A stretch of DNA of 23,869 bases, taken from positions 1 through 23,869 of IMG/VR virus record IMGVR_UViG_3300032296_000267. One strand, written 5' to 3'. Under the pieces are notes generated by a model. The model saw only the letters and a list, made by a program, of their open reading frames with translations. It did no database searches and was not told where the DNA came from. Shown one piece after another: positions 2,851-19,815 of this stretch. The translations under genes were made by a program, and so were the position numbers. This stretch comes from a virus. Within the stretch, counting starts at the first letter, position 1. Each line of letters starts with the position of its first letter.

Positions 2851-4619
2851 TGGCGGTCGCTCAACAAAGAAGGGCAGTTACCGCTTCTCTACCATCCCCT
2901 ATTGGGGGTTGGAACGCTAGGGATTCGCTTGCTGAAATGAACCCCTTAGATGCGGTTCAGATGGTTAACTTCTTTCCTACGCCTACGGATGTAACCCTTA
3001 GAAAAGGGTTCACCAAAGTATCGACAGGTATTACTGGGGCGGTTTTATCCCTAATGAATTACAGTAGCCCAACAGGTAGCAAGTTGTTTGCGTCTACGGC
3101 TACGATTATTTACGATGCAAGTACCTCAACGGCTACCTCTAGTCTTACAGGCAATACCGATGGTAAGTGGATTCATTCCATGATTACGACTGCGGGTGGC
3201 TCATTTATGCCAGCCGTTAATGGGGTTGACCCGATGGTGGTTTATGACGGCACAAGATGGTCTAGAAGTGCTACAACAAACACCGCACAGACTATTTCGA
3301 CCATTACTAGGGGTGGAACGGGCAATTTAACCGCTACCCTAACGACTGCAAGTGCTCATAATCTTGTTACAGGTAACACCATAACAGTCGCAGGTGCAAC
3401 ACCCGCAGAATTTAATGGAACTTATCGCATTACTGTAACGGGTGGATCAACCCTCACTTATACGATGGCTACTGCCCCAAGCGGTGATGCGACTGTTGTA
3501 GGCACTTACACGATTAATTACTTTATTACAGGGCTAAATTCTACTAATTTTGCCTATGTAAACCTGTTTAAAGAGCGTCTTTACTTTGTACAAAAGAATA
3601 GTTTGAGCTTTTGGTACTTGCCTGTTGACAGTATTAACGGGGCAGTAAGCGAATTCCCTCTTGGTGGCATCTTTAAAAAGGGTGGCTACCTACAAGCGAT
3701 GGGAACTTGGACTATTGACGCTGGCTACGGGGTAGATGACCTAGCCGTATTCGTTACAAGTAACGGAGAAGTCGCTGTTTACAAGGGTTCTGACCCATCT
3801 GACCCGAATGATTGGGCATTAGTCGGTATTTGGAACATCGGACAGACTTTTGCCCGTAAGTGCGTGTTTAAATTTGGTGGTGACATCCTACTTTTGACCG
3901 AAGATGGCTTAGTACCCCTATCCGCAGGACTTCAGTCTACCCGCCTAGACCCAAGAGTTAACATTACTGACAAGATTTTCTACGCTATTAATCAAGCGGC
4001 AGACCTTTATGCTACAAACTTTGGCTGGCAAATGAATTACTTTGCTAAACATAATATGTTGATCGTCAATATCCCCGTAACGGGTGGTTCAGAGCAGTAT
4101 GTCATGCACAACATTACAAAATCATGGGCTAGATTTACCAATTTAAACGCAAATTGTTGGGAAACTAGCGGTGATGATATGTACTTTGGTGCAAACGGCT
4201 TTGTGGGTAGGTTTTACGATACTTTTGCTGATGATGGCACAAATATTAAGGGCTTTGTACAGCAAGCCTATTCGTATTTCGAGTCTAGGGGGCAACAAAA
4301 ACGCTTTACCCTAGTACGCCCTATCCTACAGACAGATAACGGCTTACCGACCGTTCTATGCGGTTTAAGCACCGATTTTGATACAGTTGAATTGACTAGC
4401 CAAATATCCTTTAACCCCGCTATTCTACAAACTGGTGAATGGGACTTAGATACATGGGATAACGCTAACTGGGGCGGTGGTTTAGTAATTACTAAGATAT
4501 GGCAAGGCGTGACAGGATTAGGCTATGCAGGATCAGTTAGCCTAAATGTTGCATCGCAAGGTATTGAATTTCATTGGGCAAGTACGGATTATGTAATGGA
4601 AAAAGGTGGAGTTATTTGA
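2850..4619 (+). CDS. Tail hub / packaged-DNA stabilisation protein, P22 gp10-like
   Basis: 589 residues with the N-terminal signature SLPSPIGGWNARDSLAEM, followed by repeated beta-strand units (FVTSNGEVAVYKGSDP, then EDGLVPLSAG) that look like a beta-propeller. This is typical of gp10-like tail hub or nozzle proteins. In P22-type particles this protein sits below the gp4 adaptor, stabilises packaged DNA and connects to the needle and spikes. A Thr-rich stretch at about residues 148-225 may be an inserted Ig-like domain. Its start overlaps the adaptor stop, and its stop overlaps the TTG start of the next gene. Confident as a structural tail protein, less so for the exact family. Confidence 0.7.
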   Translation: MAVAQQRRAVTASLPSPIGGWNARDSLAEMNPLDAVQMVNFFPTPTDVTLRKGFTKVSTGITGAVLSLMNYSSPTGSKLFASTATIIYDASTSTATSSLTGNTDGKWIHSMITTAGGSFMPAVNGVDPMVVYDGTRWSRSATTNTAQTISTITRGGTGNLTATLTTASAHNLVTGNTITVAGATPAEFNGTYRITVTGGSTLTYTMATAPSGDATVVGTYTINYFITGLNSTNFAYVNLFKERLYFVQKNSLSFWYLPVDSINGAVSEFPLGGIFKKGGYLQAMGTWTIDAGYGVDDLAVFVTSNGEVAVYKGSDPSDPNDWALVGIWNIGQTFARKCVFKFGGDILLLTEDGLVPLSAGLQSTRLDPRVNITDKIFYAINQAADLYATNFGWQMNYFAKHNMLIVNIPVTGGSEQYVMHNITKSWARFTNLNANCWETSGDDMYFGANGFVGRFYDTFADDGTNIKGFVQQAYSYFESRGQQKRFTLVRPILQTDNGLPTVLCGLSTDFDTVELTSQISFNPAILQTGEWDLDTWDNANWGGGLVITKIWQGVTGLGYAGSVSLNVASQGIEFHWASTDYVMEKGGVI

Positions 4620-18655: not shown

Positions 18656-18670
18656 GGTACATACCGTACC
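18656..18670. promoter_or_regulatory. Inverted repeat GGTAC-N5-GTACC in the transcript leader
   Basis: A 5+5+5 inverted repeat directly downstream of the leftward promoter, at about +1 to +15. It takes the same place as the ACTC...GAGT repeats at the 16.7 and 19.4 kb promoters but has a different sequence. Confidence 0.45.
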
Positions 18671-18673
18671 ACA

Positions 18674-18702
18674 ATTTTAAGCCAGCTTAATTTATAAAGC
18701 AA
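18674..18702 (-). promoter_or_regulatory. Early leftward promoter for the SSB-nuclease operon
   Basis: On the - strand TTGCTT (18702-18697) and TAAAAT (18679-18674) lie 17 bases apart, followed by TTGTGG as in the sister promoters (AATTGT after the -10). It is back to back with the repressor promoter, whose -35 box starts eight bases away. The spacer contains operator site 2. Confidence 0.65.
18677..18690. promoter_or_regulatory. Operator site 2, TTAAGC-CA-GCTTAA
   Basis: A perfect 6+2+6 palindrome and the most symmetrical copy of the TTAAG-N4-CTTAA element. It overlaps the -10 box of the leftward promoter. Confidence 0.65.
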
Positions 18703-18709
18703 CAACTAT

Positions 18710-18745
18710 TTGTAAATATGTTGGTAAAATGTTAAGATAAATTAA
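18710..18745 (+). promoter_or_regulatory. Repressor-gene promoter, probably giving a leaderless mRNA
   Basis: TTGTAA (18710-18715) and TAAGAT (18733-18738) are 17 bases apart. The expected transcription start falls at 18744-18746, that is, on the ATG at 18745. No ribosome site precedes that ATG, which fits leaderless translation. The -10 box lies inside operator site 3, so the repressor could shut off its own gene. Confidence 0.55.
18732..18745. promoter_or_regulatory. Operator site 3, one mismatch
   Basis: TTAAGATAAATTAA matches TTAAG-N4-CTTAA at nine of ten arm bases. It overlaps the -10 box and the first base of the repressor start codon. Confidence 0.5.
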
Positions 18746-18966
18746 TGAACGCAGCGACACTAATTAAACTTCTCGGTGGCCCTACTCGCATCTCAAAGCT
18801 AGTAGGCGTAAGCGTTCCTGCCGTATCTATGTGGCAAAAAAGCGATATACCGATTGATAAAATGGTCATTTTGGCTGCGACTTTAGAAAAAGAAAGTCAT
18901 GGGTTAATCACCCGAAAAACCCTATTTCCAAATAGCTATAAATTAATTTGGCCTGAATTAGAATAA
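18745..18966 (+). CDS. Cro/YdaS-like transcriptional repressor
   Basis: 73 residues. A helix-turn-helix spans about residues 13-33 (TRISKLVGVSVPAVSMWQKS), as in small Cro-like and YdaS-like phage regulators. The C-terminal LITRKTLFPNSYKLIWPELE fits the short tail of that group. It would bind DNA as a dimer and control early phage promoters. It is transcribed away from the leftward operon in the classical divergent immunity layout, and five related palindromes near early promoters are plausible targets. No CI-type partner is visible in the window. Confidence 0.8.
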   Translation: MNAATLIKLLGGPTRISKLVGVSVPAVSMWQKSDIPIDKMVILAATLEKESHGLITRKTLFPNSYKLIWPELE

Positions 18967-18977
18967 TGATGCATAAT
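18948..18977 (+). promoter_or_regulatory. Possible promoter of the structured RNA
   Basis: TTGGCC (18948-18953) and CATAAT (18972-18977) are 18 bases apart and partly lie inside the repressor gene's end. The expected start, near 18983-18984, coincides with the first base of the predicted RNA fold. The -35 box is weak, so readthrough from the repressor gene is an alternative. Confidence 0.35.
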
Positions 18978-18982
18978 TGAGG

Positions 18983-19122
18983 GGCAGAGTGAAGTCTGTT
19001 TTGTAGTTACCTCTAAGCACAAGACCCCTTCGGTCTGATCTGAGTGTTTAGTAAATGGTTTAGAGGCATTTATTAAGCAACTTCACCTTAGATCAGTCCA
19101 AAGGGGTTTTTCTATTTCTGCC
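18983..19122 (+). ncRNA. Candidate structured RNA A with two pseudoknots
   Basis: Nearly every segment has a complement. A 24-position stem pairs 19021-19044 with 19087-19110, broken by two mismatches. A 13-base stem, 19045-19057 with 19067-19079, continues it. The hairpin loop TTAGAGG (19060-19066) complements CCTCTAA (19010-19016). The internal bulge ACTTCAC (19080-19086) complements GTGAAGT (18989-18995). GGCAGA (18983-18988) complements TCTGCC (19117-19122) and would close the whole. GGGG-TTTTT near 19103-19111 could also end transcription. I cannot assign a known RNA family, and no protein frame is convincing here. The strand is inferred from the flanking genes and U-tract. Confidence 0.55.
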
Positions 19123-19142
19123 GTACTTCTCACGATAGAAAT

Positions 19143-19329
19143 GGGGTTAAATCGCCCGCTAGAAAGAAAAGATGGGCTGGTTTACACCTGACAGCAAGCC
19201 CCGTAGACTTGAGTGGGTACTACACAAGTTACAAGGACAATGGTGATAGACAACCTTGTATCGAATGAACACTACCTTCGGGAGCATTAGTTCAAGATCA
19301 ATTTCTTGAATGGATGGGGTGCTATCACC
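19143..19329 (+). ncRNA. Candidate structured RNA B with a loop pseudoknot
   Basis: Stems visible: GGGCT/AGCCC (19174-19178 with 19197-19201), ACTTG/CAAGT (19207-19211 with 19225-19229), TACAAGG/CCTTGTA (19230-19236 with 19254-19260), AATG/CATT around a CC-TTCG-GG cap (19264-19288), and TTCAAGA/TCTTGAA (19291-19297 with 19304-19310). GGTGATAG (19242-19249), in the loop of the third stem, is fully complementary to CTATCACC (19322-19329), making a pseudoknot. It may be a separate RNA or the second half of RNA A. The family is not recognised, and the 66-codon frame on the opposite strand looks accidental. Confidence 0.4.
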
Positions 19330-19386
19330 TTTGGGGAACTTATGACTAAAAAACAACATATCAGGGTTTTCCTTATAAAATAATCC

Positions 19387-19416
19387 TTGCTATTGTTAAG
19401 ATAACTTAACTATAAT
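19387..19416 (+). promoter_or_regulatory. Early rightward promoter
   Basis: TTGCTA (19387-19392) and TATAAT (19411-19416) are separated by 18 bases, with operator site 4 in the spacer. The predicted start is near 19423. It is nearly identical to the leftward promoter at 16.7 kb from the operator through ATTGTCTTACTCAAT. Confidence 0.75.
19396..19409. promoter_or_regulatory. Operator site 4, TTAAG-N4-CTTAA
   Basis: TTAAGATAACTTAA, a perfect 5+4+5 palindrome between the promoter boxes of the rightward early operon. Confidence 0.6.
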
Positions 19417-19422
19417 TGTCTT

Positions 19423-19436
19423 ACTCAATACCGAGT
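19423..19436 (+). promoter_or_regulatory. Diverged leader palindrome ACTC-N6-GAGT
   Basis: Counterpart of the perfect ACTCAA-TG-TTGAGT repeat at 16645-16658 and at the same distance from the -10 box. The outer four bases of each arm are kept and the inner ones differ. Confidence 0.4.
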
Positions 19437-19457
19437 GAAAAAGAAAAGGAATAGAAA

Positions 19458-19787
19458 ATGGCAAAGCAAACTGTAGATTTCCAAGCAATATACGACCAAG
19501 CCCTAGCTGCTGGTCAAAAAGCCGAAGCAGATTACATAGAAACCGTTGGTGAAGATAACTATTGTGGTTTTGCATGGGTAGAGATTCCTAACGGTCGTAG
19601 CCCGTTTGTAAACTGGTGCAAAAAGAACAATATTGGTAGCAAACATTGGCAAAAAGGCTGGCAGATATGGCGTTGCACCAATAATATGACCCAATGTATG
19701 AATGTATTAGAAGTCGGTGCTAGCGCATTTGCTGGCGTATTAAAAGAACACGGTATCGATTCTTGGTACAACTCAAGAGCAGACTAA
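19458..19787 (+). CDS. Conserved phage early protein, first gene of rightward transcript
   Basis: 109 residues. The segment YCGFAWVEIPNGRSPFVNWC, followed by KHWQKGWQIW and a C-terminal AFAGVLKEHGIDSWYNSR, is a pattern I have seen in many phages without a known function. It has no membrane segment or recognised enzyme motif. AAAGGA precedes the ATG after a leader of about 35 bases from a strong early promoter, and a terminator lies seven bases beyond its stop. It is therefore the one gene certainly expressed from that promoter without readthrough. Confidence 0.7.
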   Translation: MAKQTVDFQAIYDQALAAGQKAEADYIETVGEDNYCGFAWVEIPNGRSPFVNWCKKNNIGSKHWQKGWQIWRCTNNMTQCMNVLEVGASAFAGVLKEHGIDSWYNSRAD

Positions 19788-19793
19788 CTAACC

Positions 19794-19815
19794 AGCCCCC
19801 TCGGGGGCTATTTTT
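19794..19815 (+). terminator. Rho-independent terminator within the early region
   Basis: AGCCCCC (19794-19800) pairs with GGGGGCT (19803-19809), followed by ATTTTTATTT. I see no new promoter before the next gene at 19831, so the downstream operon depends on readthrough or antitermination. Confidence 0.88.

What the first reader, a model, noticed from the sequence alone, without database searches (positions are those of the whole stretch)
18983..19122. Compact RNA with two pseudoknots downstream of the repressor
Within 140 bases a 24-position stem stacks on a 13-base stem; the hairpin loop and an internal bulge are each exactly complementary (7 bases) to two upstream segments; and 6-base ends close the whole. 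The upstream segments appear in the right order for a double pseudoknot. This is unlikely for a neutral spacer and fits no RNA family I know. A CATAAT box places a start at its first base.
Basis: partly seen in the sequence, partly recalled or inferred. Interest (0 to 1): 0.8.

Follow-up and report, generated by a model that had tools for sequence, protein, structure and literature searches.

The report
Swappable double-pseudoknot RNA in freshwater phages
A family of lake and river phages carries, next to its Cro-like switch gene, a non-coding RNA whose first 140 bases fold into an intricate double knot that is preserved while its letters change quickly, and this knot is joined to one of at least four different RNA tails, which points to a widespread phage RNA device whose job is still unknown.

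Summary
About 80 distinct relatives in IMG/VR keep every helix through compensating changes: 95.0% of cells pair (shuffled control 82.4%), 29 pairs have double changes, PK1 is 98.8% paired, and PK2 complementarity is far above its controls. The two pseudoknots diverge 4-5 times faster than the other helices yet stay paired. A -10 box lies 6-9 bases before the first helix in 72 of 75 loci, whatever gene is upstream. Rfam has no match for the element.

Directly 3' comes one of at least four different conserved domains. One is Rfam RF02932 (Betaproteobacteria-1); the window's own type is structured and unlisted. Identical 5' modules occur with different 3' domains.

The phages look lytic, with lambda-like early gene order, and probably infect Burkholderiales.

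Most likely function: a free-standing, trans-acting ncRNA whose 5' module is a folding or capping unit (about 0.45). The main rival is a put/EAR-like cis antitermination element (about 0.25). Transcription was not observed and no molecular function is shown.

The parts
18745..18966 (+). Cro-like HTH gene (73 aa) directly upstream; a homologue lies upstream on the same strand in 73 of 82 loci
   Evidence: P22_Cro E 3.9e-6 and YdaS E 6.6e-5, both below Pfam cut-offs; PHROG 35 repressor E 9.6e-8; neighbourhood clusters; homologue annotated as Cro in Acinetobacter phage Ab1656-2
18972..18977 (+). -10 box CATAAT of the RNA's own promoter
   Evidence: TATAAT-like hexamer 6-9 nt before the first G of GCRGA in 72 of 75 loci; 70 of 75 with at most 1 mismatch, against 12 of 75 in a control stretch
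18983..19122 (+). Double-pseudoknot 5' module (140 nt), the finding itself
18983..18988 (+). P1 5' strand GGCAGA, pairs with 19117-19122
   Evidence: GCAGA/TCTGC changes to GCGGA/TCCGC; helix 1, 95.1% of cells paired
18989..18995 (+). PK1 5' strand GTGAAGT, pairs with 19080-19086
   Evidence: helix 2: 98.8% of cells paired, 6 of 7 pairs with double changes; 16 distinct fully paired arms
19010..19016 (+). PK2 5' strand CCTCTAA, pairs with hairpin loop 19060-19066
   Evidence: register-free test: mean score 17.2, against 10.2 with shuffled partners and 10.0 with shuffled letters; 50 distinct pairs
19021..19044 (+). P2 5' strand (24 positions, 22 pairs with 19087-19110)
   Evidence: 98.0% of inner-half and 93.9% of outer-half cells paired; 5 inner pairs with double changes, none in the outer half
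19045..19057 (+). P3 5' strand, pairs with 19067-19079
   Evidence: 9 of 13 pairs with double changes, 96.6% of cells paired
19060..19066 (+). PK2 3' strand TTAGAGG in the hairpin loop
19067..19079 (+). P3 3' strand
19080..19086 (+). PK1 3' strand ACTTCAC, bulge directly 5' of P2b
19087..19110 (+). P2 3' strand
19107..19116 (+). U-rich linker TTTTTCTATT between P2 and P1 (terminator-like U tract inside the RNA); partly overlaps P2b because the outermost A-U pairs are optional
   Evidence: sequence; its conservation is partly forced because it was the search pattern, but it was seen first in loci found through a neighbouring protein
19117..19122 (+). P1 3' strand TCTGCC; the swap point between 5' and 3' modules
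19123..19364 (+). 3' domain, type A (the window's type), a further structured stretch of the same RNA; 3' end inferred from the end of conservation
   Evidence: 28 loci; 16 of 31 predicted pairs with compensating changes over 25 sequences; also in phage ctn9Y15 at 72% identity
19387..19416 (+). Promoter of the next gene with operator-like TTAAG..CTTAA in the spacer, after the RNA
   Evidence: alignment
19794..19809 (+). First intrinsic-terminator-like site downstream of the RNA on the + strand

Best explanation
The finding is the 5' module of a free-standing, non-coding phage RNA of about 380 nt (18983 to ~19364). It is transcribed from its own sigma-70-type promoter between a Cro-like gene and the replication genes. 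The 5' module folds into P1-PK1 next to a long P2/P3 hairpin whose loop is pinned by PK2, so the 5' end is buried in a helix. The 3' domain (at least four alternative types, one of them Betaproteobacteria-1 RNA) is the interchangeable part. Most likely the whole RNA acts in trans as a structured RNA during infection: the 3' domain engages the target, and the 5' module protects the 5' end and nucleates folding. Shown here: structure, conservation, promoter-like box, modular swapping, synteny. Inferred: transcription, trans action, which domain is the effector. Unknown: the target.
For: Covariation in all helices. Conserved -10 box directly before the RNA whatever gene lies upstream. Structured 3' domain with compensating changes. 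Identical or nearly identical 5' modules joined to different 3' domains, for example L004 type A and L111 type C with 0 of 140 differences. Type B 3' domain is RF02932, curated by Rfam as an sRNA gene. Chromosomal RF02932 copies without the 5' module lie next to convergent or opposite-strand genes, so a cis role is not needed there (L184, L186). The window's next gene has its own operator-bearing promoter.
Against: No intrinsic terminator within 700 nt after the module in 66 of 75 loci, so the transcript may continue into the next genes. No transcript data. No target found. The early-operon position would also suit a cis element.
Confidence: 0.45

Rival explanations
1. A cis-acting leader RNA that modifies RNA polymerase (put- or EAR-like processive antitermination), made at the start of the rightward early transcript so that polymerase reads through later terminators.
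For: Sits where lambdoid phages have nutR, between cro and the replication genes. RNA starts at +1 of its promoter. No terminator within 700 nt in 66 of 75 loci; the window has a terminator-like site at 19794-19809 that such a polymerase would have to pass. In G066 the RF02932 copy follows repeats that look like operators, in a prophage-like region with a CI-like gene.
Against: One copy per phage and none in the leftward operon, whereas put elements come as a left and right pair (own knowledge). Terminators are rare in the right arm. Some chromosomal RF02932 copies have no co-directional gene just downstream. The window's next gene has its own promoter.
Confidence: 0.25
2. A conditional intrinsic terminator (attenuator): P2 plus the U tract stops transcription at about +130 unless the pseudoknots or a bound factor prevent it.
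For: P2 base AAGGGG/CCCCTT is followed by UUUUUCUAUUUC in all relatives.
Against: P1b and the 3' domain lie beyond the U tract and are conserved and covarying, so the product of read-through is under selection. The stem is long, bulged and pinned by two pseudoknots, unlike an ordinary terminator.
Confidence: 0.1
3. A 5' protective element that shields the early transcript from 5'-end-dependent decay.
For: The first base is paired in P1 and held by a pseudoknot network.
Against: Does not explain the varied 3' domains, or the stand-alone RF02932 RNAs that have a simple hairpin in the same place.
Confidence: 0.1
4. A homo-oligomeric RNA scaffold (works like GOLLD or ROOL) in which PK1 or PK2 pair between molecules.
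For: PK1 and PK2 strands diverge 4-5 times faster than the other helices but remain complementary, as expected for a self-recognition code.
Against: The pairings also fit within one molecule. No sequence match to GOLLD or ROOL. About half their size.
Confidence: 0.1

Closest known systems
Betaproteobacteria-1 RNA (Rfam RF02932)
   Same: It is the 3' domain directly after the double-pseudoknot module in 18 of 82 loci (8 of 18 sources scanned exceed the gathering score; type assignment). Both start near a -10 box, and a P1-like hairpin GCAG/CTGC occupies the 5' position in the chromosomal copy L177.
   Different: The window's RNA has no RF02932 match even at E 5. RF02932 does not include the 5' module, and chromosomal copies and Acidovorax phage AP1 lack it.
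HK022 put RNA (and B. subtilis EAR)
   Same: Structured RNA in the early region of a lambda-like genome; put acts on RNA polymerase in cis (PMC9378689, abstract).
   Different: Different size and structure; only one copy per phage here; no functional data.
GOLLD and ROOL RNAs
   Same: Elaborate phage or prophage RNAs with pseudoknots and unknown function; GOLLD also has one conserved and one variable region (PMC12286853).
   Different: No Rfam match; about 380 nt rather than 600-800 or more; not seen beside tRNA genes in the window.
Corresponding RNA of podovirus ctn9Y15 (MW202674, Manatee Spring)
   Same: Same place after a Cro-like gene, TATAAT then 6 nt, P1 GUUGU/ACGAC, PK1 UUGGCGGA/UCCGCCAA placed directly 5' of P2b, long P2, U tract, then a type A 3' domain.
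   Different: 5' module sequence is unalignable and is not found by model R1; extra hairpin before PK1b; PK2 only about 4 bp.

Membership tests
Betaproteobacteria-1 RNA (RF02932) | Covariance-model score above the gathering threshold 49.4 | tested here: not met
   No hit in the window at gathering or at E up to 5 for 18660-19480. Met by the 3' domain of type B relatives (88-107 bits), not by the 140-nt module.
HK022 put-type antitermination RNA | One element in each early operon (left and right) | tested here: not met
   R1 finds a single copy in the window and in each relative searched, apart from the weak antisense self-match. A leftward element of unrelated sequence is not excluded.
HK022 put-type antitermination RNA | Suppresses pausing and termination in cis through RNA polymerase | not testable with these tools
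   Needs transcription assays; activity described in PMC9378689 (abstract).
HK022 put-type antitermination RNA | Located in an early operon of a lambdoid genome | tested here: met
   Between a Cro-like gene and replication genes.
GOLLD / ROOL | Match to the Rfam models | tested here: not met
   No gathering hits in the window or in 18 relatives.
GOLLD / ROOL | Homo-oligomeric nanocage | not testable with these tools
   Needs cryo-EM or native gel.
Any Rfam 15 family (ribozymes, riboswitches, introns included), for the 140-nt module | Gathering-level match | tested here: not met
   the weak mir-944, sok and mir-73 hits are far below threshold

The most novel reading that the evidence does not exclude
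A new phage RNA architecture: a constant-topology double-pseudoknot cap with a fast-evolving, always self-complementary code in PK1 and PK2, plugged onto any of several unrelated RNA effector domains. It would be a modular RNA device of lytic phages used in trans against host machinery or defence, or for self-recognising assembly.
Probability: 0.35. Interest if true: 0.88.

Novelty: new variant of a known kind. Interest (0 to 1): 0.74.

Why it matters
Few phage RNAs outside tRNAs and small antisense RNAs are understood. This one is common in freshwater phage contigs, absent from Rfam as a 5' module, extremely well supported by covariation, and joined to a known but unexplained Rfam RNA. It gives that RNA (Betaproteobacteria-1) a phage early-region setting, shows that RNA domains are exchanged in phages like protein domains, and supplies clean mutants from nature (same RNA, different pseudoknot code; same 5' module, different 3' domain) for testing what such RNAs do.

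Tried and rejected
Chance fold: rejected (z -5.65, then covariation). Antisense strand as the RNA: rejected (G-U pairs, promoter, weaker z). Known Rfam family for the 140-nt module: none. A coding function for the downstream stretch: I first took 19164-19237 for a small ORF, but compensating helices there favour RNA; the minus-strand ORFs annotated over the corresponding region of MW202674 look spurious. An H-type pseudoknot GTAG-ACTTG/CTAC-CAAGT in the 3' domain: dropped, a plain hairpin covaries better. Lysogenic immunity RNA: less likely, since no Phage_integrase match was found in 18 related records, several of 33-37 kb, although fragments could miss it. Bacterial chromosomes: of 23 pattern hits only L165, a 3.5-kb contig binned as Bacteroidota, is real, the rest are chance terminators or coding DNA; R1 in 399 Burkholderiales-order genomes gave one marginal hit, which is a terminator. 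About 40 pattern hits in IMG/VR and genomes were unrelated terminators or chance matches. Searching phages and plasmids with the type C, D and window 3' domains gave no clear homologue beyond ctn9Y15 and AP1. An empty 6-genome search with a type C sequence is uninformative. Paper searches found nothing on Betaproteobacteria-1 RNA in the held library; the 2017 discovery paper is not held.

Full report
WHAT WAS CHECKED. The element lies on the + strand at 18983-19122, starting 16 bases after the stop codon of a 73-aa Cro-like gene. The free energy is -52.6 kcal/mol against -31.1 +/- 3.8 for dinucleotide shuffles (z = -5.65); the opposite strand is weaker (z = -4.19). No tRNA and no Rfam gathering hit occur in the window, and nothing credible appears at E up to 5.

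RELATIVES. Loci carrying the next gene's relatives already showed the element with compensating changes. After removing unrelated terminators, 82 loci remain with 77 distinct 5' modules. The U-rich linker is partly conserved by construction, because it was the search pattern; the helices are not.

STRUCTURE. On 61 sequences, 95.0% of 3182 cells form standard pairs (shuffled 82.4 +/- 0.4; partners slid by one column about 55%). 29 pairs have changes on both sides and the covariation score is 0.342 against 0.140. PK1 is 98.8% paired with double changes at 6 of 7 pairs; P3 has 9 of 13 and inner P2 has 5 of 12. PK2 is misregistered by the sequence alignment and still scores 78.5%. In a register-free test PK2 scores 17.2 on average against 10.2 with partners shuffled among sequences, with 50 distinct PK2 pairs. 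The outer part of P2 shows no double changes, and the outermost A-U pair is absent in 19 of 61. Caveat: the sequences are related, so cells are not independent events; the slid control keeps relatedness and is far lower. Among close relatives, PK1, the PK2 loop and the 5' variable stretch (holding PK2a) differ at 17-19% of columns, whereas P1, P2 and P3 differ at 4-6% and the U linker at 0.3%. The pseudoknots therefore diverge about 4-5 times faster while staying complementary.

PROMOTER. A TATAAT-like hexamer lies 6-9 bases before the first G of GCRGA in 72 of 75 loci; 70 of 75 have at most one mismatch, against 12 of 75 in a control stretch. This holds when the upstream gene is cro-like (ending 13-26 bases before the RNA), a 184-aa glycosyltransferase-like gene, or another gene. 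The 5' end of the RNA is therefore inferred to be the first base of P1.

THE RNA IS LONGER. Directly after P1 every locus continues into conserved non-coding sequence. There are four main types: A (28 loci, the window's), C (22), B (18) and D (11 plus L068); two further loci carry a short fifth type. Type B is Rfam RF02932, Betaproteobacteria-1 (88-107 bits). Type A has compensating changes in 16 of 31 predicted pairs over 25 sequences and stays conserved to about window 19364. The same 5' module is found with different 3' types: L004 (A) and L111 (C) are identical over 140 bases, L086 (A) and L095 (D) differ by 2, L065 (A) and L099 (B) by 3. The junction is the 3' strand of P1, so the 5' module is a self-contained, exchangeable unit.

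OUTSIDE THE PATTERN. The circular podovirus ctn9Y15 (MW202674) has at the same place (Cro-like gene 44% identical) a 5' module of unalignable sequence but the same topology: TATAAT, 6 nt, P1 GUUGU/ACGAC, an 8-bp PK1 directly 5' of P2b, long P2, U tract, then a type A domain (topology read by eye). RF02932 without the 5' module occurs in Acidovorax phage AP1 between primase and the next gene and in 4 of 399 genomes of one bacterial order above the cut-off (the centre is Limnobacter, order Burkholderiales). In L177 a simple hairpin GCAGTCC..GGACTGC takes the place of the module right after a -10 box, as if the module were an expansion of that hairpin; this is inference. L184 lies beside HmaB/HmaC defence genes, and L183 lies in a prophage-like region.

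HOST AND LIFE STYLE. None of 18 related records has a Phage_integrase domain, and R1 is absent from 399 Burkholderiales-order genomes apart from one marginal terminator match. Lytic phages of freshwater Betaproteobacteria are therefore likely but not proven. The gene order is lambda-like: leftward recombination genes, cro, RNA, replication genes.

FUNCTION. Stand-alone trans RNA is favoured (0.45) because of its own promoter, the RF02932 link, and chromosomal RF02932 copies that are not followed by a co-directional gene. A cis antitermination leader (0.25) is favoured by the nutR-like position and the general lack of a terminator after the RNA (66 of 75 loci). It is disfavoured by the single copy per genome and by the separate operator-bearing promoter of the next gene. 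The attenuator, 5' protection and oligomer readings are kept at about 0.1 each. That the sequence is a real, selected, structured RNA is close to certain; what it does is open.

Noticed in passing
window 19363-19450; inverted copies in L002 (689-775), L003 (1174-1260), L006 (1369-1455): A promoter-operator element (TTGCTA, GTTAAGATAACTTAAC, TATAAT) is repeated in inverted orientation near the leftward operon of close relatives, probably the Cro-like protein's sites.
   Followed up: partly
L016-L021, the ~250 bases before the match at 4001 (L020: before 1519): A different conserved, RNA-like non-coding stretch (GGGGATAAGTTCTAGGCTACTGATCAAAGTCCTAGTGAGACAGAG...) precedes the relatives of the 109-aa gene in phages that lack this RNA.
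   Followed up: no
L184:8146-8264 and L187:9664-9783: Chromosomal Betaproteobacteria-1 RNAs lie beside defence genes (HmaB/HmaC in L184; weak ZacB-like match in L187), so this RNA may be linked to defence islands as well as phages.
   Followed up: partly
L171, L177, L178 (G265): One genome carries three Betaproteobacteria-1 matches, two above the Rfam cut-off and one just below it.
   Followed up: no
L179:2737-3233 (MW202674): Four tiny minus-strand hypothetical genes in the GenBank record lie wholly or largely over the structured RNA and are probably spurious.
   Followed up: no
L165: A 3.5-kb contig binned as a Bacteroidota MAG carries the module and a type C domain; probably a phage contig binned wrongly.
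   Followed up: no
L028, L029, L034, L059, L060, L067, L093, L130 and others: An unrelated phage group has a conserved terminator ending GGGGGGTTTTTTCTATTTCTGC directly after a conserved gene end; it matches the search pattern but is not this RNA.
   Followed up: no
L012, L032, L036, L049, L057, L106, L116, L127, L133, L136, L141, L143: A 184-aa glycosyltransferase-like gene, with other cargo in further loci, is inserted between cro and the RNA, ending just before the RNA.
   Followed up: partly
L051, L064: Two loci carry a short fifth type of 3' sequence (GGAAAACAYCAGTTTTC...GATGTTTTC) after the same 5' module.
   Followed up: no
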